A stretch of 64,000 nt of DNA from Tachypleus tridentatus (taxonomy: Eukaryota > Arthropoda > Merostomata > Xiphosura > Limulidae), in the NCBI RefSeq assembly GCF_004210375.1, contig NC_134825.1, positions 70,175,558 to 70,239,557 on the forward strand, in the 5' to 3' direction. Each line of letters starts with the position of its first letter. Position 1 is the first letter of the stretch. Positions 21,382 through 58,095 of the stretch are shown in pieces. The position numbers and the translations under genes were made by a program. The notes under the pieces are model-generated. The model was not told the DNA's origin. It saw nothing but the letters and a program-made list of their open reading frames with translations, and made no database searches.

Positions 21382-21453
21382 GCCATCATAGGTCAGAGGT
21401 AGAGCAATGGTTTCGTAAACCAGGGGTCGTGAGTTCGAACCTCACTGGTGGCT
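21382..21453 (+). tRNA. tRNA-Thr-CGT: tRNA-Thr(CGT), copy 1, slightly degraded
   Basis: A 72-nt cloverleaf. Acceptor GCCATCA pairs with TGGTGGC (one T-G wobble), discriminator T, T arm GTGAG-TTCGAAC-CTCAC, anticodon loop TTCGTAA with anticodon CGT. Against the sister copy at 50,548 it has GGTC for GCTC in the D stem and ATGGT for CTGGT in the anticodon stem. Each change breaks a pair, so this copy is probably weak or dead. It lies about 200 bp after the LINE end, as do copies 2 and 6. Confidence 0.85.
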
Positions 21454-21559
21454 TGCACACCCTTAACATGATGAATGCTTATACTTCTATCATATCCAGT
21501 TGAACAAATTCATGTGAAATTACTTTAGGATAAAGATGACGATACATTATTCTTAACGT

Positions 21560-21892
21560 ATTTTAAATTTTCATTAAAATAGACACCTTTGTTTAAAAAA
21601 ATTAAACTGCGTTTTCCATGCTTCTATTGATGTTACACAGCTTGTGGAAATCAATATTTTCGAAACTGCTTTAGAATAAGCCTGTTTTTGACATATGTGT
21701 TACCAAAATCTTATATTAATATAAATCCCGAGTTTGACATTACTAAACTTGACAAATACCTAAGACATGGAGTAAAAATAGAAATTTCTGGTTCGAAAAC
21801 ATGATGTAGACACCACTTCCAGCCTTGTTTCTTTACTTTCTTAGAGCACCTAGTTTTAGGCTGGAAAATACAATATTTGGATTCACCGTTTT
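21560..21892 (+). repeat. Block D (downstream of tRNA-Thr)
   Basis: Anonymous block that follows nearly every tRNA-Thr copy. Landmarks are AAACTGCGTTTTCCATGCTT, TGTGGAAATCAATATTT, TAATATAAATCCC, and CACCACTTCCAGCCTTGTTT. Further copies are at 30.2, 37.9, 48.1, 50.75 and 58.2 kb, and partial ones without a tRNA at 31.5 and 59.5 kb. No coding sign. Confidence 0.8.
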
Positions 21893-22340
21893 CTTATTTT
21901 CATTATTTATTTATTTTTAATAATTTTATGTTAATTATCGCTCTCAGATCGGAATGTCTATAAAGATAATTCATATTCTGAGGCATATTAGAACCGACTT
22001 CTTTTCTTGCCGAAAACCTTTATTCCGGTTACGCGTGGATAAAAGAACAGGACAAACTCTACGAACAGAGACCAAAGACTGCCTGAAGGGGTCACCTGTT
22101 CTTACCACTCGTACAACTGTACACTAATGTGTTGTCTACCAGCCAATCATTAGAAACTAAAATGTCACATAAAGGACACTTAGCGTTGCAATTTGTACTG
22201 TTGTGACATCAGTAAAAAATGTGCTCATGCAATGAATCACTGAAATGATTATGTACTCTGAAGGCTATAACACCTTGAGACATATAAATTTGAAAAGCAA
22301 TAAATAAAAAAAAAAACAATTTGCTACTGTTAATTTTTGT
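21893..22340 (-). repeat. Block R, inverted, with LINE 3' remnant
   Basis: The first 55 bp or so (ATTTTCATTATTTATTTATT) match the 3' end region of the minus-strand LINE near 38.64 kb and are its leftover. Block R follows in reverse (CTCTCAGATCGGAATGTCTA, GGTCACCTGTTCTTACC, GTACTGTTGTGACATC). In the plus-oriented copies (28.2, 32.1, 36.2, 46.0, 56.3, 60.1 kb) R comes right after a minus-strand SINE A. Here both are flipped together. Confidence 0.75.
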
Positions 22341-22368
22341 TTTATTTCGTTTTGAAGAAGAACACTTT

Positions 22369-22626
22369 CAGAGGCGTGGTCAGGTGGTTAATACTCTCGA
22401 ATCGTAATGTGAGGTTTCGTGTTCAAACATGCTCGCTCTTTCGATAGTAGGGCTGTTATAATGTGATAGATTAATCCCACTATTCATTGGTAAAAGAGTA
22501 GCCCAAGAGTTGGCGGTGGTTGGTAAAGACTAGTTGCCTTTCATCTAGTCTTTCACTGCTAAATTAATGTCGGCTAGCGCAGGTATCCGTATGTGGCTTT
22601 GCGCGAAATTCAAAACAAACAAACAA
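22369..22626 (+). mobile_element. Old SINE A next to block R
   Basis: Diverged copy (AGGCGTGGTCAGGTGGTTAA head, AAATTCAAAACAAACAAACA tail). The same SINE sits between R and the LINE 5' end at 45.80 kb and 51.54 kb, and next to R in other units. The insertion is therefore older than the whole array. Confidence 0.85.
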
Positions 22627-23559
22627 TTCTAAACAATGAGATCAGGAGACCTTCAGTGAGAATAAGCAAGAAGAATGGAGAAAAGCTCCTGAACATACAG
22701 GAAGAAAAAACTTTTAACCTTCCTTCTGAGTGAGATATCTACACTTATGTGGGCTAAAGAGCACTTAGAAATACTCATATAAGTTAGAGAAACTGTTAAA
22801 CGCGAGGAAGCCTAAGACTTCACCTGGACGACGAAAGTGCGGGTCGCCTAACCTGGAGCGATGGCGACAACCGCTTAGAACAAAATGAACATGACCTCTA
22901 AAAAAAAGACGCACGCTCTTCCAGTGGCCTGAAAAACAAGCTAAGTAAATCTAGTTCATTTGGTGGCCAGAAATCAGATGTAATTTCAAATGCAGTTAAT
23001 AATACCCCATTCATGGTGATATGTAATGTGGCCAAAACACAATTATCATCTTTTGATGATGATAAAGTTATTAATATAAGGAGAAAACGAGAAACAAGAA
23101 GAAAAATAGTCACCGTTACGACAGAAAGTGTTCGTACACCTGCGTCCCGAGTAGTCTTTTGCTCATAACTTAAAAAGTATTACGAATTGGCTAATACATG
23201 TATTATAAACATTATACTAACACACATTTACATAAACGTGTATGTAAATTAAACGACAAATAAATTGTTTATAAAGAAATAACCAAAAATAGAAGGAGCA
23301 GAAAGTGTTCGTACAGTTCAGAACCTGTCAAAAAACTGATGTTCCCGTAAAAATTTTGTTTTTCTTGGCGAGTAAACTACATTATACCATTCCAGAACTA
23401 GACACTATGTTTATAATTATTAAAATTTAGCCAGTAAAAAATTTACTTCCGGCAATTTAGCGCCATCTCCGTCATTATCTGCTTGGTCATCATGACGAAC
23501 AGGAAACAACTGTCCAATGATTAAAAAAAAAACCGAATTATTGTAAAATACAAGTCTCA

Positions 23560-23830
23560 TGTGTCTCTTTCCGGTATTGCTACACAAATTAATGTGCCGA
23601 AATTTACTGTTCAAAGAATAATTGCCAAGTTTAAGCTTATAGAATCAACCGCTAACCTTCCTCGTTCCAGACGCCCCACCAAAATTCGAGAGAGAACCAA
23701 GTGGAAGGTTTTCAGAAGGTTAGTAGGAATTCTCGTTTAACACGTAATGACATATAGAAACTGGTAAGGGAAACTGGAGTGAAGTAAGCACCTTTACAGT
23801 TACGAACATGTTACGCTCTTCTGGGTTCAA
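23560..23830 (+). pseudogene. Tc1-like transposase, N-terminal DNA-binding part
   Basis: Coding text SGIATQINVPKFTVQRIIAK and LPRSRRPTKIRERTKWK gives the paired helix-turn-helix with a GRP-like linker, which binds the element ends. The frame is lost after about 23,710, and a SINE B (23,839) separates it from the catalytic part. The sister copy (52,733-52,960) keeps a longer open frame, NSRLTGNDIQKLVRKTG. Confidence 0.8.
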
Positions 23831-23838
23831 AGCATGCC

Positions 23839-23971
23839 TGCCCCCCAATGGCTTAGCGGTACGTCTGCGGAATTACAACGCTAAAAACCGGGTTTCGATA
23901 CTCGTGGTGGGCAGAGCACAGATAGCCCAGTGTGTAGCTCTGTGCTTATTTTAAAACAGCAACAACAACAT
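23839..23971 (+). mobile_element. SINE B inside the Tc1-like transposase, copy A
   Basis: Flanked by the perfect 11-bp repeat CAAAGCATGCC (23,828-23,838 and 23,972-23,982). Head CCCCAATGGCTTAGCGGTA, B box GGGTTTCGATACTC, tail GCACAGATAGCCCAGTGTGT, (CAA)n end. It splits the transposase gene. The same insertion is present at 53,012 in the duplicate. Confidence 0.95.
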
Positions 23972-24029
23972 CAAAGCATGCCGTCCTCGTAGAACTCCAT
24001 ATTTAAAGCCTGTTCATTTAGAAACACGA

Positions 24030-24623
24030 TTGAGGTATGCAAGAAAACATGTAGTTAAACCCTTTACCTATTGGAAGAATATTCTTTGGTCAGACGAGAC
24101 TAAAATCGAGCTTTTCGGCCACAGCGATGTTCGCTATATTTTCCGTAAGAAGGGGGAACGAAATCTTCCAAAGAACACCGTCCATACAGTTAAATACGGA
24201 AGTGGCTCGATCATGCTATGGGGTTCCTTCAGCTCTTCTGGTGTAGGCAGCCTTCACCACGTCAACGGAATCAAGAAAAAAGAAGAGTACGTTGATATAT
24301 TAGGCACTTATATCGAGAATGATGGTTGTAACTTGCGGCTTGGGCGTCGTTGGATCTTCCAGCACGACAATGACCCTAGGCACACATCGAAATATGTGCA
24401 CACCTGGTTGCAGAGGAACCATATAAGCGTTCTGGAGTGGCCATCACAGTCACACGATCTCAACCCAATTGAAAACGTTTGGCATGAGTCGAAGACCAGG
24501 GTTTATCAGCGTCATCGGAAAAACTTGGAAGAGTTGGAGGCCTTCTGTAAAGAAGAATGGAAAAAAAATACCAGTACTGTCAAACGATCATGGAGGGCTA
24601 TGAGGAGAGATTGCGCCAAGTAA
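24030..24623 (+). CDS. Tc1-like transposase, catalytic part (partial)
   Basis: An open frame of 197 codons, the longest clean coding stretch of a transposase here. The DDE triad is visible: D in NILWSDETKIELFG (about residue 22), D in FQHDNDPRHTS (about residue 113), E in LNPIENVWHESK (about residue 148). The 34 residues between the last two make it DD34E, as in Tc1. The N-terminal domain lies upstream behind a SINE insertion and frame loss, so no complete enzyme can be made here. The frame ends at TGCGCCAAGTAA. The sister copy at 53,203 has a stop in the middle. Confidence 0.9.
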   Translation: MRYARKHVVKPFTYWKNILWSDETKIELFGHSDVRYIFRKKGERNLPKNTVHTVKYGSGSIMLWGSFSSSGVGSLHHVNGIKKKEEYVDILGTYIENDGCNLRLGRRWIFQHDNDPRHTSKYVHTWLQRNHISVLEWPSQSHDLNPIENVWHESKTRVYQRHRKNLEELEAFCKEEWKKNTSTVKRSWRAMRRDCAK

Positions 24624-24862
24624 TGTTACACAACTGACCATTAAAGTGGACGCACGAACACTTTCTGCTTCTCTATGTTTGGTTATTTGTTTATAAACAG
24701 TTTATTTGTCGTTCAATTTACATAAATATGTATGTAAAGTGTGTTAGAAGAATATTTATAATATACTCTACTTTCATTATCCTAATCTTGATACTTTTTA
24801 AGTTGTGACGAACAAAACTACTCACGACGCAGGGGTACGAACACTTTCTGTCGTAACTGTGG

Positions 24863-25240
24863 TACCAAAATTTTCAAGTAGAGCAATTGAAAACACCAGC
24901 AATTGTAGTTATACAATGCTAAAATTGCCAAAGATATGGTCACGTATCAGCGGCACGTTTGACAACACCGAGGTGACGTGGACATGGCGGTAAGCACCAT
25001 ATATTTGTCTGTAAAAAATAGTAAGAAAAACCTAATAGTTGCAACTGCATAAAACACTCATAGCAAACTACAAAGTTTGCGACAAGTACAAAAAAATAAA
25101 GCAACATATCTATGAAATAAAAACAACAAGACCAATTCCAAACGATATAACTAACACAACTGCATAAGAAACACACGCTGCTACAACAACAGATACAGTG
25201 ACAAATGCAGAAAAGCTGAAGGAAAACATCACACAACAAA
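24863..25240 (+). pseudogene. LINE ORF1, zinc-knuckle end
   Basis: A frame containing NCQRYGHVSAARLTTP and GGKHHIFVCKK, with stops, resembles the CCHC knuckles at the end of Jockey ORF1 proteins (CYNCQRYGHV..., then CxxCxxxHxxxxC). These bind the element RNA. Cysteines are missing in the first knuckle. The minus-strand LINE at 44.5 kb carries the same region. Confidence 0.65.
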
Positions 25241-26250
25241 AATCACACACAAGAGAAGAACAAAACCCAACCAAAATAGTGAACAATACACAAGAACTTA
25301 ACAAAAACACAGACACAACAAACATTCAAGAGAACAACACTCATACAATAAAAGAGAGCAGAAACGACGAAACAAGTTTAATAGTAAATATAAATAAAAC
25401 ATCTTTACAGATTTTATTGCAGAATACACAAATCTATCCCAAACTAAAAACTGCTTTGATCTCTTCACACGCGATGCAAAAAAATAATAAAGAAAGCCAT
25501 ACCTACCACAACGATCACTGGATACTTACTAAAAGCAAATTCACAATTCTAGGTATCAACATCAAAGGTTCACTAACTTCCAAGAACCACGAGATCGAAG
25601 ACATTATAATAGTAATTAAACCTGATATTATTATTCTAAGTGAAACCCGGATTTATGTTAACAATAAATTTAAAATATGTAATTTTACGCCAGTTAGAAA
25701 AGTTAGAATAAACAACCATGATACTAACAGAGGAATTATTTTGTTATATAAGTACATTCTTTCAGTTATTCAAAATTAAAATGAACGGTAATAATGAAAA
25801 TATAATTGTTGATATCCTGCGAGTTAACCATTAATTTTTAACACTAGCAGGTATTTACTGTTCACCAACAAAATGTATTGACATAAATGTATTCCACAAC
25901 ATCTTTTCCCACTACCAAAATACAATTGTAATAAGTGATCTGAATAGTAAACATAAAAACTTTGGACGTAAATCCACCAACAGAAATGGAAGACACTTAT
26001 TGCAATTCATTGATGAAAATAACATCGTCCTAAAATTGACAGTAAACCTACGCATACTACGTATGCTACAAATAAAAGTGATATCCTAGGCAACTGCCTC
26101 ACCTCCTTAAATATCAGACAAAAGTTATTAAGTTCTAATGTGGGAAAAGATGTTGACAGTAATTATCTACCAATATGGTGTGCTTTCGATCTCGCTCCCC
26201 ATAAAGATATAACCTTTAAACAATACAAAATTCAACTACCAGAAAGCTAA
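25198..26250 (+). pseudogene. LINE ORF2 N-terminal part with endonuclease
   Basis: The frame 25,198-25,779 ends in ILGINIKGSLTSKNHEIEDI and IKPDIIILSETRIYVNN, the start of the APE-type endonuclease (family wording: N..GL..K..EL......PDI..L.ET). Further endonuclease motifs follow in shifted frames: IYCSPTKCIDINVFHNIFS, VISDLNSKHKNFG (GDxNAxH-type), GRHLLQFIDENNIVL, and SNYLPIWCAF at the SDHLP site. The endonuclease nicks target DNA for integration. The catalytic histidine of SDH is changed and the frame is broken. Confidence 0.78.
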
Positions 26251-26880
26251 TTGCCAAGAATATCAGAAAGAATTAGACAACATATTACCAGAAAATGTTG
26301 AGCATACAGCCAACAACAAAGTAGAAGTTGGTAGTTGTAGTCAAATAATCACTGAGTGCCGACTAAAAGCAGCAACTAACACTGTACCACAGGAACAACA
26401 TAAAACTATAAATAACGCATAGAAACAAAGAAACAACTAATAACACTAATAAAACAACGAAGACAATTAAGAAGACAGTTCATGGCAACAAGAGATAAAG
26501 AAATAAAAACACCAATAAACAGTATCTGAAAAAAAAATGAGACCAGAAAAATGGGATAAGAAAACGAAAAAAAACCGACCCTAGAAAGTTTCGATCGCAG
26601 TTACAAAGAGGAACCAAAGATACCACAAAAAAAATACCCAACACTAAAATAAAATAACACATCAGCACACCTAACAAAGAAAAAGCAGAAGGCTTCAGAC
26701 AAGAACTGCAAAACACTTTCAAAACACAACGACACAGGCGTGAAAACCTATTTTTACAATACAGTAAACGACCATATCATATTAATACAGAATTATACAA
26801 ACCATATTTCCCAGTCAATATCAACAACAATAACACGAATAACATAAATGACTATAATAAGCTAATGTTTGTCGAAAACG

Positions 26881-27162
26881 GTTTGGTTTGGGTTTTGGAA
26901 TTTCGCACAAATCTACTCGAGGGCTATCTGTGCTAGCCGTCCCTAATTTAGCAGTGTAAGACTAGAGGGAAGGCAGCTAGTCATCACCACCCACCGCCAA
27001 CTCTTGGGCTACTCTTTTACCAACGAATAGTGAGATTGACTGCACATTATAACGCCCCCACGGCTGGGAGGGCGAGGATGTTTGGCGCGACTCGGGCGCG
27101 AACCCTCGACCCTCAGATTACGAAGCGCACGCCTTAACGCGCTAGGCCATGCCAGGCCCCTT
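26881..27162 (-). mobile_element. SINE A in LINE copy A, with target duplication
   Basis: Flanked by the perfect repeat TCGAAAACG (26,872-26,880 and 27,163-27,171), and LINE sequence reads on at both sides. The head on the minus strand is GGGGCCTGGCATGGCC. It is close to the copy at 14,679 and so looks young. It is one of the two recombination partners proposed for the deletion in copy 2. Confidence 0.93.
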
Positions 27163-27736
27163 TCGAAAACGTTATGTTACAAGAACTCAAACAAGAAGTT
27201 AAGATTTCATAAAACAAATCACCAGATAGTGACAGCATATAAGAAATTGTCTTTAAAAAAGGCACTTCGAAATTATTTGATCATCTAGTAGCAATTTTTC
27301 GTTTATCGTTCTACCCTAAGAACAAACTATGGTAGGAATCTTACTGGCAAAACAATGGAGTTACAGTTGAAAACATCCTCAAAATATACAAAACATATAT
27401 AGACCTATGTAGGCTCCTACATACTACAATAAAATATTTCAATAAAAGTTGGAGAAAAAATGAACTATTATGCGAGCTCGTCAGGTATTGCATATATGAT
27501 GAAGATAGTACAAAACACCTGTTTCCGATTAATTTACAAATTATATTCCTGAGCAGAGGAGAAAACAGTACAATACCTTACCTTTGAAAATGTTGTTGAA
27601 GAAATGTTATTAATACTATATTTTACACGTGTGATTGTTTTAACAGTGCTATATTAATAGTTTGAACGATAAGTTAATATTAAACATACTGTATAGTTTC
27701 ATAAAGAAATTATATGTTTTACAAACGAAGTAACAA

Positions 27737-27808
27737 GCTATCATAACTTAGAGGTAAAGCACTGGTTTCGTAAACCAGCGGTCATGAGTTCGAACCTCAC
27801 TGGTTGTT
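27737..27808 (+). pseudogene. tRNA-Thr(CGT) pseudogene, copy 2
   Basis: Same position relative to the LINE end as copies 1 and 6. The anticodon arm CTGGT-TTCGTAA-ACCAG and T arm are readable, but the acceptor (GCTATCA against TGGTTGT) has a T-T mismatch and wobbles, the D stem reads ACTT against AAGC, and the T stem has ATGAG against CTCAC. It is missing from the second segmental copy. Confidence 0.8.
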
Positions 27809-27971
27809 TGTATATCTTAAACGAGACGAATGATTATACTTCTATTGCCTGCAATTGAGCTAAATAACCTAAAATTATGTTAAAGTAAATATGGCGATAC
27901 ATTGTTTTTCACATCATATTTTACAGTTTCAATGAATAAGATCAAAATTACCCGAGGGAAAAAACTTTTTT

Positions 27972-28240
27972 GTTTGTTTTTGAATGTCGCACAAATCTAC
28001 CCGTAAGCTCTCTGTGCTAGCCGTTTATAATTTAGCAGTGTGAAACTAGAGGGAAGGCAACTTGTCATCACCAACCACCGCCAACTCTTTGGCTACTCTT
28101 TTACCAATGAATAGTGGGATTGACCTATCACATTATAACGGCCCGACCGCTAAAAGGACGAGCATGTTTAGAGTAACGGGGATTCGAACTCGTGACCCTC
28201 AGATTACGATTCGACTGTCGTAACCACCTGACCACGCCTC
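27972..28240 (-). mobile_element. Old SINE A next to block R (plus units)
   Basis: Diverged copy with the private change TTTATAATTTAGCAG in the centre and head AGAGGCGTGGTCAGGTGGTT on the minus strand, directly followed by block R. It is the second partner in the proposed SINE-SINE recombination. Confidence 0.85.
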
Positions 28241-28690
28241 TGAAAGCTTTCTGCTTTAAGAGTGAATTAAACTGAAATTAAGTGTAGCCAACTGTTTTTT
28301 ATTTATTGCTTTTCAAATTTATATGTCATATGGTGTTATTTCCAGAGTACATAAATATGTTAGTGATTTATGTCATGAGCACCTTTTTTACTGACGTCAA
28401 AAGAGTACAAATTGCAACTGTAGGTGTCCCTTATGTGGCATTTTAGTTTCTAATGACTGGCTGGTAGACAACACATTAATGTAGAATTATGCGAATGGTT
28501 ACTACAAAGTGACCTCTTCAGGCGGTCTTTTGTTCTTGTTCGTAATGTTTGCCGTATCATCTTACCCGCGCGTCACCAGAATAAAAGTTTTCCCAAGAAC
28601 AAAGTCGGTGGCAAAATTCCTAAGAAAATTAATTATCTTCATAGACATTCCGATCTGAGAGCGATAATTTTTAATAAAGAAATGTCTTTA
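28241..28690 (+). repeat. Block R
   Basis: Anonymous block shared by eight places in the window. Landmarks are TTTATTTATTGCTTTTCAAA, GTACAAATTGCAAC, GACTGGCTGGTAGACAACAC and GACATTCCGATCTGAGAGCG. No open frame is conserved among copies, so it is non-coding. Confidence 0.75.
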
Positions 28691-29650
28691 TAACTATAAC
28701 TACAACATGCAAGAAAATCTCGTATTTTGATATTATTGTGATATCATTCATAATTAAATATAGTTAAAATTACGAAGCAGAAGAATAACACAGAAAAAAG
28801 TTTTAGTTATTTGTTCAATTAAATTCATGAATAATTCATAGTATAACTATGTCGATAATTTAATTGAATTATTTCAAATACCTTCTAACCACATAAACAT
28901 TTTCATCGATTTTGATATTTTTAAACAAACAAGAGAAGAAATCCACTGCTAAATTGTAATAGTTTGAATGTGAAAATATGAAACCCAACTGGAAGGATAG
29001 CACTTACAACATTTAGGTTACTAGACCAGTACTCTACTACTGCTCCTTATAGCACTGTACGATTGTTTTTTTAAACATATAATTTATAGAGAATAATATG
29101 TAGGTTGGGTATGTGCTGAGATAAGTATCTTGCATTTTATTCAAGCGATGCATATACCACAACTAAATAATTGCAATATTGATATTCTAATATAATTAAA
29201 GCTTGGACACAACAACTTTAGTTTAAATGAATATTATTTCTATTGTAACTCCTAAATGAGAAAGTAGATTCGAAGAAAGAATATTCTATTGATCTTCGAT
29301 GTTCCTGTCGCTTGGGAAAAGTGTTAAGGTTTTTCTGTTTTAATCATCTTGTTAAATAATTTGTAAGAGTCTCACAAATAAATGTCTATAAAAGGATTAG
29401 CACCGGTTTCTTCGGTTTTTAAGATGGTTTATTTTATGATATATGGCTGTACTTTTTTGATCAGATGACTACCTTCGTAAACAGATATATTCGTGTACCA
29501 CCATTTTCGATGATGATTTATTAATGTTTCAAAAACATTCTTCACACAGGTGGCAGGTTGATATTTATGTGTAGAAAAATCTAAAGAGTAAAATTCAAAT
29601 AAATGCTTTCTTTATGCAGTGATTGGAGAAAAGCAAACACAATTGTACTA
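28691..29650 (+). repeat. Block E
   Basis: Follows R in every plus-oriented unit (full length also at 46.6 and 56.7 kb, shorter at 32.5, 36.8 and 60.5 kb). Landmarks are TTGATATTATTGTGATATCA, GAAGCAGAAGAATAACAC, TGGTTTATTTTATGATATAT and TTGATCAGATGACTACC. No coding sign and no terminal repeats were found. Confidence 0.7.
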
Positions 29651-29654
29651 CTGT

Positions 29655-29795
29655 GTTTGCCACCTCCACTAGTTGCACAGCCAAATATCTGCTGACTTAC
29701 GATAATAAAAACAGGGTTTCGATACCCATTGTGGGTAGAGCACAGACAGTCCGCGGTGTATCTTTATGCGTAATTTAAAACAACAACTTTTATAT
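29655..29795 (+). mobile_element. Degraded SINE B upstream of tRNA-Thr
   Basis: Readable as CCTCCACTAGTTGCACAGCC, GGGTTTCGATACCC and GGTAGAGCACAGACAGTCCG with a tail AATTTAAAACAACAAC. The same copy precedes the tRNA-Thr at 37.7, 47.9 and 58.0 kb, so it belongs to the ancestral unit. Confidence 0.75.
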
Positions 29796-29984
29796 ACTGA
29801 ACAGAGGAGAAAATAGTACAATACCTTAATGTTGAAAATGTTGTCGAAGATGTGTTCTCAATATTATATTTTCTTTACGTGTGATTGTTTTAACAATGCT
29901 AAAATATTCCACTGAACGATAAGCGAATATTCAATATACTGTAGAACATTAAAGAGAAACAATGCATTTTAAAAAATATGTGTG

Positions 29985-30061
29985 TGCTATTAGAGCTCTG
30001 ATTGGGGTAGAGCACTGGTTTTGTAAACCAGGAGTCGTGAGTTCGAATCTCACTGGTGGCT
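29985..30061 (+). tRNA. tRNA-Thr-TGT: tRNA-Thr(TGT), copy 3, enlarged D loop
   Basis: Acceptor GCTATTA can still pair fully with TGGTGGC using three wobbles. D stem GCTC/GAGC with an 11-nt loop (TGATTGGGGTA), longer than in the other copies. Anticodon arm CTGGT-TTTGTAA-ACCAG, anticodon TGT. T arm GTGAG-TTCGAAT-CTCAC. The cloverleaf is intact but the acceptor is weak. The identical form is at 58,020. Confidence 0.75.
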
Positions 30062-30179
30062 TGTATATCTTGAACTTGACGGATACTTTTATTTTCATTA
30101 CTTGTAATTGAACAAAATAACATAATATTATTTTACGATAAATATGACGATACATTATTTTTCATATAATTTAAATTTT

Positions 30180-30444
30180 CAATAAAAGCGACATTGTTAT
30201 TTAAAAATATAAACTGCGTTTTCTCTGCTCCTATTAATTTTATACAGCGTGTGGAAATCAATATTTCCCAAACTGCTTGAAGTATAACCCTGTTTTTGAT
30301 ATATCTATTATAAAATTCTAAAATTAATATAAATCAAAAAATTTGACTTTACTAAAGTTGATAAATGCTGTAGACATGGAGAGAAAAAAGAATTTTTTGT
30401 TCGAAAACATAATGTGGACACTACTTTCAGCCTTGTTTCTTTTC
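30180..30444 (+). repeat. Block D after tRNA copy 3
   Basis: Has AAACTGCGTTTTCTCTGCTC, ATCAATATTTCCCAAACTGC and ACACTACTTTCAGCCTTGTT. It runs directly into an inverted LINE fragment at 30,445. Confidence 0.75.
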
Positions 30445-31475
30445 TGAGGGCCCGTAGATTTGCTAATGTTATTTTTCTGGTTAGCAGTAGATTGTAAAAG
30501 TCATTTATGTTATTGGTGTTATTGTTGTTAATATTGACTAGGAAATATGGTTTGTATAATTCTGTGTTATTTGTTACATAATTATTTACTGTATTGAAAA
30601 AATAGGTGTTCACGTCTGGGTCGTTGTGTTTTGAAAGTGTTTTGTAGTTGTTGTCTGAAGGCTTCTGGGTTTTCTTTGTCGGTGTGTGCTAATGCGTTAT
30701 TTTGTTCTTATGTTGGGTATTTTCTTGTTGTGGCTTTTTTAGTGAGTCTTTTTAGGTGCGACCAAAGCTCTCTAGGGTCGGTTTTTCCATTTAGTTTGCA
30801 GCAGAAATTGTCCCATTTTTCTTGTTTTAACAATTTAATTTCTGCTCTGATTTTATTTCTGATACTTTTTAGTTGTGTTTTGATTTCTTTATCTCTTGTT
30901 GCCATGAACTATCTTCTTAATTGTCTTCGTTGTTTTATGAGTGTTATTAGTTGTTTGTTTGATTTCCATGCGTTATTTGTAGCTATTTGCTGCTTTTAGT
31001 AGGCACTCCGTGATTATTTGACTACAGCTATCAAATTCTACTTTGTTGTTGGCTGTATGCTCAACATTTTCTGGTAATATGTTGTCTAATTCTTACTCAC
31101 ATTTTTGCCAATTAGCTTCTTTCTAGTCGAATTTGTCTTCTTTAAAGGTTATATCTTTATGGGGGGGGCGAGATCGAAAGTACACCATATTGGTAGAAGA
31201 TCACTGTCAACATCTTTTCCCACGTTAAAATTTAATAACTTTTTTTTAATATTAAAGATGTCACTTGTATTTGTAGCATACGTGGTATGCGTAGGTTCAC
31301 TGTCGTTTATTGGAGCGATGCTATTTCATCAATGAATTGCAATAGGTGTCCTCCATTTGTGTTTGTGGATTTATGCCAAAGTTTTTACATTTACTATTTA
31401 GATCACCTATTACCATTGTATTTTGGTTGTGGGAAAGATGTTGTGGAATAGGTTTATGTCAATACATTTGGTTGG
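30445..31475 (-). mobile_element. LINE ORF2 fragment, minus strand
   Basis: Minus-strand LINE piece from the endonuclease end (about 31,470) to the linker before the reverse transcriptase (about 30,445). Readable parts are MATRDKEIKTQLKSIRNKI and NGKTDPRELWSHLKRLTKK (30,905-30,708), then VNNYVTNNTELYKPYFLVNI (30,570-30,500). The reverse transcriptase and 3' UTR are absent. It is close to the fragment at 58.5-59.5 kb. Confidence 0.85.
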
Positions 31476-47695: not shown

Positions 47696-47889
47696 ATATA
47701 TCTGAACAGAGGAGAAAACAGTACAAAACCTTACTGCTGGAAATGTTGTCGAAGAGATGTTCTTAATATGTTTTTTTTTACGTGTGATCGTTTTAACAAA
47801 GCTAAATTAATCCATTGAACGACAAGCGATTATTTAATATACTGTATAAGATTGAAGAGAAATAATGCGTTTTTAACCGATTTATACGA

Positions 47890-47961: not shown

Positions 47962-48089
47962 TGTATATCTTGAACTTGACGGATGCTTTTATTTTCATTA
48001 CCTGTAATTGAACAAAATAACATAATATTATTTTACGATAAATATGGGGATACATTATTTTTCATATAATTTAAATTTTCAATAAAAGC

Positions 48090-48952: not shown

Positions 48953-50345
48953 TATGGGTGAAAGAGCGCTAAAAAATACTCAAATACAGAAACTGTTAAA
49001 CGTGAGGAAGTCTAAGACTTAAATTGGACAACGAAAGTGCCGGTCGCCTAACCTGGAGCGATGCCGACAACCACTTAGTAGAAAAAGAACATGACATCTA
49101 GAAACCAAGACAATCAAGAAGACAGCTCATGACAACAAGAGACAAAGAAATAAAAACACAAATAAGCAGTATGAGAAATAAAATCAGACCAGGATTATAT
49201 TGTTAAAAGAAGAAAAATCGGATAACATCTGCTCCCAACTAAACGAAAAAAAAACCGATCCTAGAAAGTTTCGGTCGCACCTATAAAGGCTCACCAAAGA
49301 AGCCACAACAAGAAAATACCCAACACTAGAATAAAATAACACATTAGCGCACACGAACAAAGAAAAAGCAGAAGCCTCCAGACAACAACTACAAAACACT
49401 TTCAAAACAAAACGACCCTGACGTGAACACCTATTTTTACAATAGAGTAAACAGTCATGTAACAAATAACACAGAATTATCCAAACCATATTTCCCAATC
49501 AATATTAACAACGATAACACCACAACATAAATGACTATAATAATCTACCGCTTCTTAAAATTTACATTAACATAACTCAAACAAGCAATTAAGAATTCAA
49601 GAAACAAATCACCAGAAAAGGACGGCATACAAGAAATTCTCTTCAAGAAAGGCACTTCGAAATTATTTGATCATCTATTAGAAATTTTTCATTTATCGTT
49701 CTACCCTTGCTACATCTCAGTTTCTTGGAAGCAAGCTAATACATTAATGTTCCATAAAGAAGGTATGGTAGCCAATAAACTAAACAGTTATCGACCAATC
49801 AGCCTGACCAGCTGTGTATGAAAAATTCTTGAACGAATAATCAGTAATAGACTCTCCACATTTTTGGAAATAACGTCAAAATTACTCGAGAGACAAAACG
49901 GATTCAGAAAACTTATACAAAAGGCATATCACTTAGTAAGGTTAACTGAAACAATAATAATCAGATTTAACAACAAAAGTATTAGGCGAAGAACAAACTA
50001 TCCCAGGAGCCTAACTGGTAAAAACAATGGAGTAACAGCTGAAACCATTCTCAAAATATACAAAACGTATATAACTGTAATAGACTATGCAGCTCCAGCG
50101 TGGATTAACGTTAGCAAAAAACAATTCTAAACCAAACAAGAGTCATTATAAAATATACTACTTTCGACAGCATGTAGAGTGCGCAAAAACCACTTCTTCA
50201 AAGTTTATGCATAAATATTCAAACCCACAAACAATAGTAGATAGAACTATACATACTACAATAAAATATTTCGATAAAATGTTTTGAAAAAATGAACTAT
50301 TATACGAACTCGATAGGTATTGCATATAGATAGTCCTGAACACCT
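48953..50345 (+). mobile_element. LINE with two internal deletions, plus strand
   Basis: Starts in ORF1 (48,953-49,108, CTAACCTGGAGCGATGCCGA), jumps to the ORF2 linker (49,109, CAATCAAGAAGACAGCTCAT), and continues to the reverse transcriptase start and, after the second deletion, to its C-terminal end (frame 49,864-50,130: NGFRKLIQKAYHLVRLTETI then SIRRRTNYPRSLTGKN). From about 49,789 it equals copy 1 at 20,610. The part to the left corresponds to what the assembly gap hides there. Confidence 0.88.
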
Positions 50346-50547
50346 CTCCGCGATTAATATACAGATTATACACCTGAACAGAGGAGGAAACAGCACAATA
50401 CCTTACCGTTGAAAATGTTCTTAATATTATATTTTTTACGTGTGATTGTTTTAACAATGCTATATTAATATTTTGAACGATAAGTTGATATTAAACATGC
50501 TGTATAGTTTCTTCACGAAATTATACGTTTTTCAAATAAAGCAACGA

Positions 50548-50619
50548 GCCATCATAGCTCAGAGGTAGAGCACTGGTTTCGTAAACCAGGGGTCGTGAGT
50601 TCGAACCTCACTGGTGGCT
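50548..50619 (+). tRNA. tRNA-Thr-CGT: tRNA-Thr(CGT), copy 6, intact
   Basis: Full cloverleaf without mismatches except one T-G wobble in the acceptor: GCCATCA, D arm GCTC-AGAGGTA-GAGC, anticodon arm CTGGT-TTCGTAA-ACCAG, T arm GTGAG-TTCGAAC-CTCAC, TGGTGGC, discriminator T. Promoter boxes are intact. It would read ACG. No TTTT occurs within the first 50 bp or so downstream, which may weaken termination. Confidence 0.93.
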
Positions 50620-50749
50620 TGCACACCTTTAACATGATGAATGCTTATACTTCTATCATATCCAGTTGAACAAATTCATGTGAAATTACTTTAGGATAAA
50701 GATGACGATACATCATTCTTTACGTATTTTAAATTTTCATTAAGATATA

Positions 50750-51065
50750 CATCTTTGTTTAAAAAAATTAAACTGCGTTTTCCATGCTTCTATTAATGTT
50801 ACACATCTTGTGGAAATCAATATTTTTGAAACTGCTTTTAGAATAAGCCTGTTTTTGACATATGTGTTACCAAAATCTTATATTAATATAAATCCCGAGT
50901 TTGACTTTACTAAACTTGACAAATACCTAAGACATGGAGTAAAAATAGAAATTTCTGGTTCGAAAACATGATGTAGACACCACTTCCATCCTTATTTCTT
51001 TACTTTCTTAGAGCACCTAGTTTTAGGCTGGAAAATACAATATTTGCATTTGGATTCACCGTTTT
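50750..51065 (+). repeat. Block D after tRNA copy 6
   Basis: As at 21,560, with AAACTGCGTTTTCCATGCTT and CACCACTTCCATCCTTATTT. Confidence 0.78.
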
Positions 51066-51520
51066 TTTTATTTTCATTATTTATTTATTTTTTAATAATT
51101 TTATGTTAATTATCGCTCTCAGATCGGAATGTCTATAAAGATAATTCATATTCTGAGGCATATTAGAACCGACTTCTTTTCTTGCCGAAAACTTTTATTC
51201 CGGTTACGCGTGGATAAAAGAACAGGACAAACTCTACGAACAGAGACCAAAGACCGCCTGAAGGGGTCACCTGTTCTTACCACTCGTACAACTGTACACT
51301 AATGTGTTGTCTACCAGCCAATCATTAGAAACTAAAATGTCACATAAAGGACAATTAGCGTTGCAATTTGTACTGTTGTGACATCAGTAAAAAATGTGCT
51401 CATGCAATGAATCATTGAAATGATTATGAAGGCTATAACACCTTGAGACATATAAATTTGAAAAGCAATAAATAAAAAACAATTTGCTACTGTTAATTTT
51501 TGTTTTATTTCGTTTTGGAG
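51066..51520 (-). repeat. Block R, inverted, with LINE 3' remnant
   Basis: Counterpart of 21,893-22,340, with a small deletion (TTATGAAGGC for TTATGTACTCTGAAGGC). Confidence 0.75.
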
Positions 51521-51534
51521 AAGAACACTTTCAG

Positions 51535-51789
51535 AGGCGTGGTCAGGTGGTTAATACTCTCGAATCGTAATGTGAGGTTTCGTGTTCAAACATCCTCGCT
51601 CTTTCGATAGTAGGGCTGTTATAATGTGATAGGTCTATCCCACTATTCATTGGTAAAAGAGTAGCCCAAGAGTTGGCGGTGGTTGGTAAAGACTAGTTGC
51701 CTTTCATCTAGTCTTTCACTGCTAAATTAATGTCGGCTAGCGCAGGTATCCGTATGTGGCTTTGCGCGAAATTCAAAACAAACAAACAA
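51535..51789 (+). mobile_element. Old SINE A next to block R
   Basis: Counterpart of 22,369-22,626 with very few differences. Confidence 0.85.
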
Positions 51790-53011
51790 TTCTAAACAAT
51801 GAGATAAGGAGACCTTCAGTGAGAATAAGCAAGAAGAATGGTGAAAAGCTACTGAACATACAGGAAAAAAAAACACTTTTAACCTTCCTTCTGAGTGAGA
51901 TATCTACACTTATGTGAGCGAAAGAGCACTAAGAAATACTCATATAAGTTAGAGAAACTGTTAAACGCGAGGAAGCCTAAGACTTCACCTGGACGACGAA
52001 AGTGCGGGTCGCCTAACCTGGAGCGATGGCGACAACCGCTTAGAACAAAATGAACATGACCTCTAAAAACCAAGACGCATGCCCTTAAAGTGGCCTGAAA
52101 AACAAGCTAAGTAAATCTAGTTCATTAGGTGGCCAGAAATCAGATGTAATTTTAAATGGAGTTAATAATACCCCATTCATGGTCAAATGTAATGTGGCCA
52201 AAACACAATTATCATCTTTTGATGATGATAAAGATATTAATATAAGGAGAAAACGAAAAACAAGAAAAAAAATAGTCACCGTTACGACAGAAAGTGTTTG
52301 TACACCTGCGTCCCGAGTAGTCTTTTGCTCATAACTTAAAAAGTATTATGATTAGGCTAATAGATGTATGGTATGTTATAAACATTATACTAACACACAT
52401 TTACATAAACTTGTATGTAAATTAAACGACAAATAAATTGTTTATAAAGAAATAACCAAAAATAGGAAGAGCAGAAAGTGATCGTACAGTTCAAAACGTG
52501 TCAAAAAACTGATGTTCCCGTAAAAATTTTGTTTTTTTTTGGCAAGTAAACTACATTATACCATTCCAGAACTAGACACTGGGTTCATAATTATTGGAAT
52601 TTCGCCAGCAAAAAATTTACTTCCGGCAATTTAGCGCCATCTCCGTCATTATCTGCTTGGTCATCATGACGAACAGGAAAGAACTGTGCAATGATTTAAA
52701 AGAACCGAATTATTGTAAAATACAAGTCTCGTGTGTCTCTTTCCGGTATTGCTACACAAATTAATGTGCCGAAATTTACTGTTCAAAGCATAATTGCCAA
52801 GTTTAAGCTTATAGAATCAACCGCTAACCTTCCTCGTTCCAGAAGCTCCCACCAAAATTCGAGAGAGAACCAAGTGGAAGGTTTTCAGAAGGTTAGTAGG
52901 AATTCTCGTTTAACAGGTAATGACATACAGAAACTGGTAAGGAAAACTGGAGTGAAGTAAGCACCTTTAGAGTTACGAACATGTTACGTTCTTCTGGGTT
53001 CAAAGCATGCC

Positions 53012-53144
53012 TGCGCCCCAGTGGTTTAGCGGTATGTCTGCGGATTTACAACGCTAAAAACAGGGTTTCGATACACATGGTGAGCACAGCACAGATAGCC
53101 CAGTGTGTAGCTCTGTGCTTATTTTAAAACAGCAACAACAACAT
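53012..53144 (+). mobile_element. SINE B inside the Tc1-like transposase, copy B
   Basis: Same insertion and same CAAAGCATGCC duplication (53,001-53,011 and 53,145-53,155) as at 23,839. Confidence 0.94.
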
Positions 53145-53202
53145 CAAAGCATGCCGTCCTCGTAGAACTCCATATTTAAAGCCTGTTCATTTAGAAACAC
53201 GA

Positions 53203-53796
53203 TTGAGGTATCCAAGAAAACATGTAGTTAAACCCTTTACCTATTGGAAGAATATTCTTTGGTCAGACGAGACTAAAATCGAGCTTTTCGGCCACAGCGA
53301 TGTTTGCTATATTTTCCGTAAGAAGGGGGAACGAAATCTTCCAAAGAACACCGTCCATACAGTTAAATACGGAAGTGGCTCGATCATGCTATGGGGTTCC
53401 TTCAGCTCTTCTGGTGTAGATAGCCTTCACCACGTCAACGGAATCATGAAATAAGAAGAGTACGTTGATATATTAGGCACTTATATCGAGAATGATGGTT
53501 GTAACTTGCGGCTTGGGCGTCGTTGGATCTTCCAGCACGACAATGACCCTAGGCACACATCGAAATATGTGCACACCTGGTTGCAGAGGAACCATATAAG
53601 CGTTCTGGAGTGGCCATCACAGTCACCCGATCTCAACCCAATTGAAAACGTTTGGCATGAGTCGAAGACCAGGGTTTATCAGAGTCATCGGAAAAACTTG
53701 GAAGAGTTGGAGGCCTTCTGTAAAGAAGAATGGAAAAAAAATACCAGTACTGTCAAACGATCATGGAGGGCTATGAGGAGAGATTGCGCCAAGTAA
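53203..53796 (+). pseudogene. Tc1-like transposase, catalytic part, copy B
   Basis: All three catalytic motifs are as in copy A (WSDETKIELFG, FQHDNDPRHTS, LNPIENVWHESK), but a stop at 53,452-53,454 (after GIMK) divides it into 53,203-53,454 and 53,506-53,796. In copy A the same place reads KKK. SPDLNP here is the family form, where copy A has SHDLNP. Confidence 0.9.
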
Positions 53797-55998
53797 TGTT
53801 ACACAACTGACCATTAAAGTGGACGCACGAACACTTTCTGCTTCTCCTATATTTGGTTATTTGTTTATAAACAGTTTATTTGTCGTTCAATTTACATAAA
53901 TATGTATGTAAAAGTGTGTTAGAAGAATATTTATAATATACTCTACTTTCATTATCCTAATCTTGATACTTTTTAAGTTGTGAGGAACAAAACTACTCAC
54001 GACACAGGGGTACGAACACTTTCTGTCGTAACTGTGGTACCAAAATTTTCAAGTAGAGCAATTGAAAACACCAGCAATTGTAGTTATACAATGCTAAAAT
54101 TGCCAAAGATATGGTCACGTATCAGCGGCACGTTTGACAACACCGAGGTGACGTGGACATGGCGGTAAGCACCATATATTTGTCTGTAAAAAATAGTAAT
54201 AAAAACCTAATTGTTGCAACTGCATAAAACACACACAGCAAACTACAAAGTTTGCGACAAGTACAAAAAAATAAAGCAACATATCTATGAAATAAAAACA
54301 ACAAGACCAATTCCAAACGATATAACTAACACAACTGCATAAGAAACACACACTGCTACAACAACAGATACAGTGACAAATGCAGAAAAGCTGAAGGAAA
54401 ACATCAGACAACGAAAATCACACACAAGAGAACAACGAAACCAAACCAAAATAGTGAACAATACACAAGAACTTAACAAACACACAGACACAACAAACAC
54501 CCAAGAGAACAACACTCATATAATAAAAGAGAGCAGAAACGACGAAACAAGTTTAATAGTAAATATAAATAAAACATCTTTACAAATTTTATTGCAGAAT
54601 ACACAAATCCATCCCATACTAAAAACTGCTTTGATCTCTTCACACGCGACGCAGAAAAATAATAAAGAAAGCCATACATACCACAACGATCACTGTGTTA
54701 AATAAACGTGTTAAATAAACCTCCTGATAGCAAAACTATGAGTCTGATATTATTATTCTAAGTGAAACCCGGATTTATGTTAACAATAAATTTAAAATAT
54801 GTAATTTTACGCCAGTTAGAAAAGTTAGAATAAACAACCATGATACTAACAGAGGAATTATTTTGTTATATAAGTACATTCTTTCAGTTATTCAAAATTA
54901 AAATGAACGGTAATAATGAAAATATAATTGTTGATTTCCTGCGAGTTAACCATTAATTTTTAACACTAGCAGGTATTTACTGTTCACCAACAAAATGTAT
55001 TGACATAAATGTATTCCACAACATCTTTTCCCACTACCAAAATACAATTGTAATAAGTGATCTGAATAGTAAACATAAAAACTTTTGACGTAAATCCACC
55101 AACAGAAATGGATGACACTTATTGCAATTCATTGATGAAAATAACATCGTCCTAATAAATGACAGTAAACCTACGCATACTATGTTTGCTAGAAATAGAA
55201 GTGATATCCTAGGCAACTGCCTCACCTCCTTAAATATCAGACAAAAGTTATTAAGTTTTAATGTGGGAAAATATGTTGACAGTAATCATCTACCAATATG
55301 GTGTGCTTTCCATCTCGCTCCCCATAAAGATATAACCTTTAAACAATACAAAATTCAACTACCAGAAAGCTAATTGCCAAGAATATCAGAAGGAACTAGA
55401 CAACAAATTACCAGAAAATGTTGAGCATACATCCAACAACAAAGTAGAAGTTGGTAGTTGTAGTCAAATAATCACTGAGTGCCGACTAAAAGCAGCAACT
55501 AACACTGTACCACAGGAACAACATAAAACTATAAATAACGCATAGAAACAAACAAACAACTAATAACACTAATAAAACAACGAACACAATTAAGAAGACA
55601 GTTCATGGCAACAAGAAACAAAGAAATAAAAACACCAATAAACAGTATCTGGAAAAAAAATGAGGCCAGAAAAATGGGATAACTAAACGAAAAAAAACCG
55701 ATCCTAGAACGTTTCGATCGCAGTTACAAAGAGGAAACAAAGATACCACAAAAAAAAATAATACCCAACACGAGAATAAAATAACACACCAAAAAAGAAA
55801 AAGCAGAAGCCTTCAGACAAGAACTGCAAAACACTTTCAAAACACAACGACACAGGCGTGAAAACCTATTTTTACAATACAGTAAACGATCATATCATAT
55901 TAATACAGAATTATACAAACCATATTTCCCAGTCAATATCAACAACAATAACACGAATAACATAAATGACTATAATAAGCTAATGTTTGTCGAAAACG

Positions 55999-56275
55999 GT
56001 TTGGTTTGGTTTTTGGAATTTCTCACAAATTTACTCGAGGGCTATCTGTGCTAGCCATTTATAATTTAGCAGTGTAAAACTAAAGGGAAGGCAGCTAGTC
56101 ATCACCAACCACCGCCGACTCTTTGGCTACTCTTTTACCAATGAATAGTGGGATTGACCTATCACATTATAACGGCCCGACCGCTAAAAGAACGAGCATG
56201 TTTAGAGTAACGGGGATTCGAACTCGTGACCCTCAGATTAGGATTCGACTGTCGTAACCACCTGACCACGCCTCT
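55999..56275 (-). mobile_element. Chimeric SINE A (SINE-SINE recombinant)
   Basis: Its tail side (TTGGAATTTCTCACAAATTT, CTCGAGGGCTATCTGTGCTA) and its left flank match the SINE at 26,881. From ATTTATAATTTAGCAG onward it matches the older SINE at 27,972, including its head AGAGGCGTGGTCAGGTGGTT and the following block R. See the finding for this locus. Confidence 0.88.
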
Positions 56276-57685
56276 GAAAGCTTTCTGCTTCAAGAGTGAA
56301 TAAAACTGAAATTAAGGGTAGCCAACTGTATTTTATTTATTGCTTTTCAAATTTATATGTCATATGGTGTTATTTCCAGAATACATAAATATGTTAGTGA
56401 TTTATGGCATGAGCACCTTTTTTACTGACGTCAAAAGAGTACAAATTGCAACGGTAGGTGTCTTTTATGTGGCATTTTAGTTTCTAATGACTGGCTGGTA
56501 GACAACACATTAATGTAGAATTGCGCGAATGGTTACTACAAAGTGACCTTTTCAGGCCGTCTTTGGTTCCTGTTCGTCGTGTTTTCCCTGTCATCTTACC
56601 CACGCGTCACCAAAATAAAAGTTTTCGCAAGAAAAAAGTCGGTGGTAAAATTCCTAAGAAAATTAATTATCTTCCTAGACATTCCGATCTGAGAGCGATA
56701 ATTTTTAATAAAGAAATGTCTTTATAACTATAACTACAACATGCAAGAAAATCTCGTATTTTGATATTATTGTGATATCATTCATAATTAAATATAGTTA
56801 CAATTACGAAGCAGAAGAATAACACAGAAAAAAGTTTTAGTTATTTGTTCAATTAAATTCATTAATGTTTTTCCTTCGTATAACTATGTCGATAATTTAA
56901 TTGAATTATTTCAAATACCTTCTAACCACATAAACATTTTCATCGATTTTGATATTTTTAAACAAACGAGAGAAGAAATCCACTACTAAATTGTAATAGT
57001 TTGAATGTGAAAATATGAAATCCAACTGGAAGGATAGCACTTACAACATTTAGGTTACTAGACCAATACTCTACTACTGCTCCTTATAGCACTGTACGAT
57101 TGTTTTTTTAAACATATAATTTATAGAGAATAATATGTAGGTTGGGTATGTGCTGAGATAAGTACCTTGCATTTTATTCAAGCGATGCATATAACACAAC
57201 TAAATAATTGCAATATTGATATTCTAATATAATTAAAGCTTGGACACAACAACTTTAGTTTAAATGAATATTATTTCTATTGTAACTCCTAAATGAGAAA
57301 GTAGATTCGAAGAAAGAATATTCTATTGATCTTCGATGTTCTTGTCGCTTGGGAAAAGTGTTAAGGTTTTTCTGTTTTAATCATCTTGTTAAATAATTTG
57401 TAAGAGTCTCACAAATAAATGTCTATAAAAGGATTAGCACCGGTTTCTTCGGTTTTTAAGATGGTTTATTTTATGATATATGGCTGTACTTTTTTGATCA
57501 GATGACTACCTTCGTAAACAGATATATTCGTGTACCACCATTTTCAATGATGATTTATTAATGTTTCAAAAACATACTTCACACAGGTGGCAGGTTGATA
57601 TTTATATGTAGAAAAATCTAAAGAATAAAATTCAAATAAATGCTTTCTTTATGCAGTGTTTGGAGAAAAGCAAACACAATTGAAC
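56276..57685 (+). repeat. Blocks R and E before tRNA copy 7
   Basis: Counterpart of 28,241-29,650 with scattered substitutions and a small insertion (TTTTTCCTTC near 56,870). Confidence 0.75.
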
Positions 57686-57689
57686 TACT

Positions 57690-57826
57690 GTGTTTGCCAC
57701 CTCCACTAGTTGCACAGCCGAATATCTGCTGACTTACGATAATAAAAACCGGGTTTCGATACCCATTGTGGGTAGAGCACAGACAGTCCGCGGTGTATCT
57801 TTATGCGTAATTTAAAACAACAATTT
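57690..57826 (+). mobile_element. Degraded SINE B upstream of tRNA-Thr copy 7
   Basis: CCTCCACTAGTTGCACAGCC, CGGGTTTCGATACCCATTG, AGAGCACAGACAGTCCGCGG, counterpart of 29,655. Confidence 0.75.
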
Positions 57827-58019
57827 TTATATACTGAACAGAGGAGAAAATAGTACAATACCTTACTGTTGAAAATGTTGTCGAAGAGGTGTTCTTAATA
57901 TGTTTTTTTACGTGTGATTGTTTTAACAATGCTAAAATAATCCACTGAACGATAAGCGAATATTCAATATACTGTAGAACATTAAAGAGAAACAATGCAT
58001 TTTTAAAAAATATGTGCGA

Positions 58020-58095
58020 GCTATTAGAGCTCTGATTGGGGTAGAGCACTGGTTTTGTAAACCAGGAGTCGTGAGTTCGAATCTCACTGGTGGCT
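58020..58095 (+). tRNA. tRNA-Thr-TGT: tRNA-Thr(TGT), copy 7, enlarged D loop
   Basis: Counterpart of copy 3 with the same 11-nt D loop and wobble-rich acceptor. Anticodon arm CTGGT-TTTGTAA-ACCAG. Confidence 0.75.

What the first reader, a model, noticed from the sequence alone, without database searches (positions are those of the whole stretch)
21382..58095. Array of seven threonine tRNA genes built into a mobile-element composite repeat
Seven tRNA-Thr copies, all on the + strand, lie at 21,382, 27,737, 29,985, 37,721, 47,890, 50,548 and 58,020. Each has the same block D on one side or a clear derivative, and the same 190-bp stretch upstream (CTGAACAGAGGA..., TTTTTTACGTGTGA). Units also share SINE A, block R, block E and a LINE. 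tRNA genes are often multicopy, but here the amplified unit is mostly transposon sequence, and several copies keep a complete cloverleaf. At least copies 4 and 6 look usable.
Basis: partly seen in the sequence, partly recalled or inferred. Interest (0 to 1): 0.72.

Follow-up and report, generated by a model that had tools for sequence, protein, structure and literature searches.

The report
Large threonine tRNA gene array
Seven threonine tRNA genes in this horseshoe-crab window are one end of a much larger block of about seventy such genes that grew by copying long stretches of chromosome, with old transposons carried along; it is a large example of a familiar kind of gene cluster, and many copies look worn.

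Summary
The seven tRNA-Thr genes are real and at the stated places. The genome is Tachypleus tridentatus. The window holds most of a 10-unit array ending near window position 74,560; a sister array at C1:67.93-68.28 Mb adds 64 units. A 32-nt upstream tag gives 73 hits in 2.17 Gb, all in these two arrays, so the tRNA unit is not a dispersed mobile element. It spread by segmental/tandem duplication: a five-gene super-unit (T1-T5) recurs at about 96% identity as T6-T9. A SINE lies exactly 68 bp before the tag in 10 units: one insertion, then copied. Each array stops at a 500-N gap, so the two may be one array split by a misoriented scaffold piece. 73 of 74 units pass Rfam's tRNA cut-off and ARAGORN of 74 Thr, but only 27 of the 59 units with exactly 72 nt have no stem mismatch plus a Thr anticodon. 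In the two large subfamilies the tRNA body shows no clear extra conservation; in the small CGT_B subfamily it does. 29 of 38 CGT-type units lack a T-run within 95 nt. Expression is untested.

The parts
21382..21453 (+). T1, tRNA-Thr (CGT), subfamily CGT_A; one D-stem and one anticodon-stem mismatch
   Evidence: (52.8 bits)
27737..27808 (+). T2, tRNA-Thr (CGT), subfamily CGT_B; mismatches in acceptor, D and T stems; no partner in super-unit B
   Evidence: (46.6 bits)
29986..30061 (+). T3, tRNA-Thr (TGT) with a 4-nt insertion in the D arm
   Evidence: (50.5 bits)
37721..37791 (+). T4, tRNA-Thr (TGT), 71 nt, best Rfam score in the window; T-run 20 nt downstream
   Evidence: (68.7 bits)
47890..47961 (+). 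T5, tRNA-Thr (TGT), one D-stem mismatch
   Evidence: (58.5 bits)
50548..50619 (+). T6, tRNA-Thr (CGT), subfamily CGT_A, no stem mismatch; first T-run only 108 nt downstream
   Evidence: (68.3 bits)
58020..58095 (+). T7, tRNA-Thr (TGT), same 76-nt sequence as T3
   Evidence: (50.5 bits)
20610..48947 (+). Super-unit A (T1-T5); starts at the first base after an assembly gap
49790..64000 (+). Super-unit B (T6, T7 in the window; T8, T9 beyond it, to about 71,097); about 96% identical to A; lacks the counterparts of 27124-27960 (with T2) and 41504-47448
20110..20609 (.). Assembly gap of exactly 500 N abutting the left edge of the array
37533..37564 (+). Upstream tag of T4 (CTGAACAGAGGAG...CCTTA), the 32-nt pattern used to count units genome-wide; tags of the other six window copies lie about 205-215 bp before their tRNAs
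   Evidence: C1:70213090-70213121
37465..37487 (+). Diagnostic stretch of the dispersed SINE ('SINE A') before T4, 68 bp before the tag
27958..28239 (.). About 280 bp piece of a block repeated in the array; its family is dispersed (up to 52 matches in 204 kb of flanks)
23955..24623 (+). Tc1-type transposase fragment (DDE_3, HTH_Tnp_Tc3_2), copied with the super-unit (second copy at 53128-53793, broken)
39010..39465 (-). Mos1/mariner-type transposase fragment (HTH_48)

Best explanation
A nuclear tRNA-Thr gene array of a horseshoe crab (Tachypleus tridentatus). An ancestral tRNA-Thr gene with about 190 bp of upstream and about 440 bp of downstream sequence was duplicated and diverged into a TGT-anticodon line and two CGT-anticodon lines. 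Transposons landed in and between the units. Unequal exchange and segmental duplication then copied multi-gene stretches (in the window a five-gene super-unit of about 28 kb) with their transposons, giving at least 74 units. The two assembled blocks are probably one array broken at an assembly gap. The best copies should be transcribed by RNA polymerase III as ordinary threonine tRNAs; many others carry stem or anticodon changes. Shown: unit structure, pairing of super-units, confinement to C1, fixed SINE offset, chimeric units, gaps. Inferred: unequal exchange as the mechanism, the single-array reading, expression.
For: 7 of 7 window tRNAs confirmed. Tag confined to two C1 arrays, 73 of 73 hits; 40 of 40 scored matches to the whole unit also lie there. 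Super-units A and B are 94-97% identical over blocks up to 13.7 kb, with tRNA-unit pairs at 97-98% and non-paired window units at 74-92%. Both super-units lie in one stretch without N from 20,610 to 164,000, so they are not alleles split over contigs. SINE at exactly 68 bp from the tag in 10 units, 71 other hits elsewhere. Four units (L032, L034, L064, L066) join a CGT_A upstream and tRNA to a TGT-type downstream flank, a recombination signature. 73 of 74 units reach Rfam's tRNA cut-off; ARAGORN of 74 tRNA-Thr. 35 of 36 TGT units have a T-run 20-32 nt downstream.
Against: No expression data. In the large TGT and CGT_A subfamilies the tRNA body is not clearly more conserved than its flanks, and among the four recent pairs it differs more (13 of 291 against 61 of 2482 bases, p 0.053), so many copies may not matter to the animal. 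21 of 30 CGT_A and 8 of 8 CGT_B units lack a T-run within 95 nt. Unequal exchange is inferred from the products only; replication-based duplication would look alike. A few hundred kb of the sister array was sampled as 401-bp units plus three longer pieces, not read through.
Confidence: 0.87

Rival explanations
1. The unit is itself a mobile element or a tRNA-derived SINE that multiplied by transposition.
For: Units carry dispersed repeats, and tRNA genes are the usual ancestors of SINEs (general knowledge; PMC2888827 passages).
Against: 73 of 73 tag hits lie in two places on one chromosome. Recent copies are collinear over up to 13.7 kb, far beyond a SINE. The tag-to-SINE distance is constant in 10 units.
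Confidence: 0.03
2. Mostly pseudogenes: a dead array that expanded neutrally, with the animal's working Thr tRNAs coming from elsewhere.
For: Only 27 of the 59 exactly-72-nt units have a flawless cloverleaf and Thr anticodon (15 of 74 units with other lengths not scored). No clear extra conservation of the tRNA body in TGT and CGT_A. 58 of 126 matches to a Thr anticodon-arm pattern lie outside the arrays, and most of the outside copies scanned score 62-73 bits.
Against: 17 CGT_A and 10 TGT units are intact by that strict test, and T4-like 71-nt copies score as high. 12 units share one CGT sequence and 10 share one TGT sequence. CGT_B tRNAs are nearly invariant (7 of 8 identical). Between subfamilies the tRNA is more conserved than the proximal upstream and downstream flanks.
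Confidence: 0.3
3. Assembly artefact: the repeats are false duplications.
For: Both arrays abut 500-N gaps; the assembly is an older long-read plus Hi-C one with contig N50 1.69 Mb (table in PMC7815833; sequencing method recalled).
Against: Seven window copies and three beyond lie in one gap-free stretch, and non-paired copies differ by 8-26%, too much for false duplication. Copy number and the 2-Mb separation of the two arrays remain unsafe.
Confidence: 0.05

Closest known systems
Human 1q23.3 tRNA tandem repeat (PMC4041453; abstract and one results section read)
   Same: tRNA genes inside kilobase-scale repeat units amplified in tandem, with transposon fragments inside units; arrays prone to copy-number change.
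   Different: Human: 7.3-kb GC-rich units about 98% alike, several tRNA genes per unit, 9-43 units per allele, CTCF-bound. Here: AT-rich, older and diverged (74-98%), a single isotype (Thr), mixed orientation in the sister array, super-unit about 28 kb; CTCF not tested.
Entamoeba tRNA gene arrays (PMC2652664; abstract and outline seen)
   Same: Tandem arrays whose units hold up to five tRNA genes.
   Different: There nearly all tRNA genes are in 25 array types with short tandem repeats between genes; here one isotype in long transposon-bearing units, with other Thr genes elsewhere.
tDNA clusters of other animals such as zebrafish and stickleback (PMC2888827; passages seen)
   Same: Lineage-specific bursts of clustered tRNA genes and pseudogenes.
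   Different: That survey counts tRNA genes under 1 kb apart as clustered; here spacing is 2-10 kb, so such counts would miss it.

Membership tests
Nuclear tRNA-Thr gene | Cloverleaf above the tRNA covariance-model cut-off | tested here: met
   73 of 74 units; 7 of 7 in the window
Nuclear tRNA-Thr gene | Thr anticodon (NGT) | tested here: met
   67 of 74 units called Thr by ARAGORN; 7 of 7 in the window. Exceptions: T9 TTT, L062, L066, L070, L091 altered; L057, L082 not called
Nuclear tRNA-Thr gene | Pol III terminator (run of four or more T) close downstream | tested here: inconclusive
   35 of 36 TGT units within 32 nt; 9 of 30 CGT_A within 32 nt and 21 at 96-108 nt; 0 of 8 CGT_B within 95 nt
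Nuclear tRNA-Thr gene | Expressed and charged with threonine | not testable with these tools
   No RNA data available
Tandem tRNA gene array | Repeated units with long shared sequence in one region | tested here: met
   92.9% of 20,601-76,000 has another copy inside that stretch
Tandem tRNA gene array | Copy-number variation between individuals | not testable with these tools
   One assembly only
tRNA-derived SINE / mobile element | Dispersed through the genome | tested here: not met
   73 of 73 tag hits in two C1 arrays
tRNA-derived SINE / mobile element | Own boundaries with target-site duplications | not tested
   No script looked for them; copies are collinear for many kb

The most novel reading that the evidence does not exclude
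The two blocks are one mega-array of threonine tRNA genes, expressed, in which relaxed selection on single copies exposes transcription-associated mutation directly: one-off changes peak at -60 to +100 of TGT genes and appear to shift downstream in CGT genes that have lost their terminator and so make long-trailer transcripts. Such an array would be a natural experiment in tRNA gene mutation, terminator loss and rescue by recombination.
Probability: 0.2. Interest if true: 0.55.

Novelty: new member of a known kind. Interest (0 to 1): 0.36.

Why it matters
It shows how a single tRNA isotype can be amplified into dozens of copies by large segmental duplications that sweep transposons along, and it gives many near-neutral replicate tRNA genes in which decay, recombination and terminator loss can be read side by side. 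It also flags a probable orientation error of about 2.27 Mb in a published horseshoe-crab chromosome.

Tried and rejected
Mobile-element reading: tested by tag, unit and block searches and rejected for the tRNA unit. (block 27970-28669) is only partly informative: its 40 scored hits all lie in the arrays, but 9885 candidates were seen and not scored, and part of that block is dispersed.

Conserved upstream promoter: -195 to -66 is as conserved between subfamilies as the tRNA (0.09-0.20 against 0.10-0.17 differences). I considered a control element, but one-off changes are also fewer there in the TGT family, so a lower mutation rate explains it as well; not resolved.

Transcription-associated mutation: in TGT units one-off changes are 44 of 5392 cells at -60..+100 against 18 of 7759 elsewhere (p 3e-6; p 1e-6 without five mutated copies). 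In CGT_A 41 of 5191 from the tRNA onward against 17 of 4862 upstream (p 0.004), but p 0.10 after dropping the four most mutated copies. The bin limits were chosen, so these p values are optimistic. Counts left out the four chimeras and L057, L091, L092.

Pfam on the ORFs at 41580-41873 and 42539-42847 (my recalled reading: Penelope-like element) gave no family, so that label is recall only. Literature searches for a nuclear tRNA array in horseshoe crabs (plus word counts in two horseshoe-crab genome papers: 'tRNA' 0 times in each) showed none in the rows listed; the assembly's own paper is not held.
Full report
OBSERVATION. Rfam scores run from 46.6 (T2) to 68.7 bits (T4), all above the 29-bit cut-off. 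Aligned units show the shared upstream stretch and the tRNA, and self-comparison shows a shared unit of about 660-715 bp, shorter for T2.

WHERE IT IS. The window is G000:C1:70175558-70239557 of a 2,167,478,450-base genome in 205 contigs. Strong Coagulin (PF02035) matches, best E 1.5e-25, point to a horseshoe crab. I take the species as settled.

THE WHOLE ARRAY. A 32-nt pattern from the upstream stretch, with up to 3 mismatches, gives 73 hits, all on C1: 10 at 70.20-70.25 Mb (7 in the window, 3 just beyond) and 63 at 67.93-68.28 Mb; the reversed-pattern control gives 0. One more unit without the tag (L092) was found through tRNA patterns, making 74. Searching with the whole T6 unit gives 40 scored matches, all in the same two places, out of 155 candidates. 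The last window-array unit, T10, starts at window coordinate 74,239, and its homology ends near 74,559. Beyond 76,000 only one weak (65%) stretch of 350 bp or more resembles the array.

UNIT PAIRS. T1/T6, T3/T7, T4/T8 and T5/T9 are 97.1, 98.0, 97.1 and 97.3% identical over 700 bp, against 74-92% for the other comparisons. Blocks of up to 13.7 kb align at 94-97% between 20,610-48,947 and 49,790-71,097. So a super-unit of five genes was duplicated. The second copy lacks the piece with T2 (27,124-27,960) and the piece 41,504-47,448. In the first copy the T2 piece is flanked by stretches that both match 55,993-56,243, which fits loss by recombination between direct repeats. There is no N from 20,610 to 164,000, so this is one contig stretch.

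TRANSPOSONS ARE PASSENGERS. A 23-nt stretch of 'SINE A' has 81 hits genome-wide with up to 1 mismatch: 10 lie in the arrays, each exactly 68 bp before the tag (compare), and 71 lie elsewhere. One insertion was copied with its tRNA unit. Tc1- and Mos1-type transposase pieces also lie in the super-units. Sequence matching the 204 kb of flanks covers 11,974 of 55,400 array bases (21.6%), and the flanks match themselves over 40,201 of 204,200 (19.7%). Both are lower bounds, but the array is not richer in dispersed repeats than its surroundings by this test. 92.9% of 20,601-76,000 has another copy inside that same stretch.

SUBFAMILIES. The 74 units fall into TGT (36), CGT_A (30) and CGT_B (8), with 40 distinct tRNA sequences. 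Four units (L032, L034, L064, L066) join a CGT_A upstream and tRNA to a TGT-type downstream flank, evidence of exchange between units. ARAGORN of 74 as Thr; T9 has anticodon TTT, L062, L066, L070 and L091 are altered, L057 is a 25-nt fragment and L082 is not called. 73 of 74 pass Rfam.

INTACTNESS. Among the 59 units of exactly 72 nt, 27 (17 CGT_A, 10 TGT, 0 CGT_B) have no stem mismatch and a Thr anticodon; 15 units of other length, T3, T4 and T7 among them, were not scored this way. A run of four or more T lies 20-32 nt downstream in 35 of 36 TGT units. In CGT_A it is within 32 nt in 9 of 30 and at 96-108 nt in 21; in CGT_B none of 8 has one within 95 nt. Of the nine CGT_A units with a near run, four are the chimeras, so exchange with a TGT unit brought a terminator with it.

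SELECTION. Results are mixed. Mean pairwise difference of the tRNA body within TGT is 0.059 against 0.056-0.114 in flanks, within CGT_A 0.028 against 0.022-0.122, but within CGT_B 0.004 against 0.025-0.232. One-off changes per cell are 0.0078 in TGT tRNAs against 0.0053 upstream and 0.0019 downstream, 0.0080 in CGT_A against 0.0035 and 0.0084, and 0.0020 in CGT_B against 0.0084 and 0.0573 (the CGT_B contrast with upstream is not significant, p 0.20). In the four recent pairs the tRNA differs at 13 of 291 positions and the flanks at 61 of 2482 (p 0.053). So the two large subfamilies show no clear constraint on single copies. Between subfamilies the tRNA (0.10-0.17) is as conserved as the distal upstream part (0.09-0.20) and more conserved than the proximal upstream (0.17-0.39) and downstream flanks (0.23-0.38). 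Older constraint with recent relaxation is my reading.

MUTATION PROFILE. In TGT units one-off changes peak from -60 to +100 (p 3e-6 with bins chosen afterwards). This resembles transcription-associated mutation around active tRNA genes as described in a passage of PMC8113476, which cites Thornlow et al. 2018; I did not read the latter. The CGT_A pattern (raised from the tRNA onward) would fit read-through after terminator loss, but it weakens to p 0.10 without four copies.

ASSEMBLY. A 500-N gap at window 20,110-20,609 touches the first array base, and another 500-N gap at C1:67,927,215-67,927,714 touches the first base of the sister array. The far ends of both arrays run into non-array sequence without N in the 10 kb (sister) and about 90 kb (window) fetched. 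At its gapped end the sister array has its tRNAs on the minus strand; turning the 2.27-Mb piece between the gaps around would bring the two gapped ends together on one strand. No array sequence lies on the other side of either gap in what I fetched. A misoriented scaffold piece is therefore likely (about 0.7, inference), a real inversion possible. Copy number at the gap is unknown.

OTHER THR GENES. Of 126 genome matches to a Thr anticodon-arm pattern (up to 1 mismatch), 68 are array units, so at least 58 lie elsewhere. Of 14 outside copies scanned (L093-L106) 11 score 62-73 bits, and the rest 32.3, 32.3 and 46.6. The animal does not depend on the array alone.

COMPARISON. The closest described cases are the human 1q23.3 tRNA tandem repeat (PMC4041453) and the Entamoeba arrays (PMC2652664); PMC2888827 describes bursts of clustered tRNA genes in many animals. 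This is a new member of that kind, notable for size, for one isotype, and for the long transposon-bearing super-unit.

Noticed in passing
window 20110-20609 and G000:C1:67927215-67927714: Two 500-N assembly gaps each touch the first base of an array; the 2.27-Mb piece between them may be drawn in the wrong orientation.
   Followed up: partly
L009:6030-6101 (T9, just beyond the window): An array tRNA whose anticodon is TTT (Lys) while its pair T5 has TGT; also an acceptor-stem mismatch, so perhaps a pseudogene rather than an anticodon switch.
   Followed up: partly
G000:C10:56711260-56744488: Another regular array: five CGT-type Thr pattern hits on the minus strand about 8.3 kb apart, with related hits on the plus strand between them.
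   Followed up: no
G000:C1:67989710-67990100: A half unit that begins inside the tRNA gene (matches only positions 246-635 of the 635-base query), near the place where gene orientation in the sister array switches from minus to plus; possibly an inversion breakpoint.
   Followed up: no
G000:C13:57856293-58092570 and G000:C7:20512463-21374087: Further groups of Thr anticodon-arm hits outside the array (7 and 8 exact hits listed).
   Followed up: no
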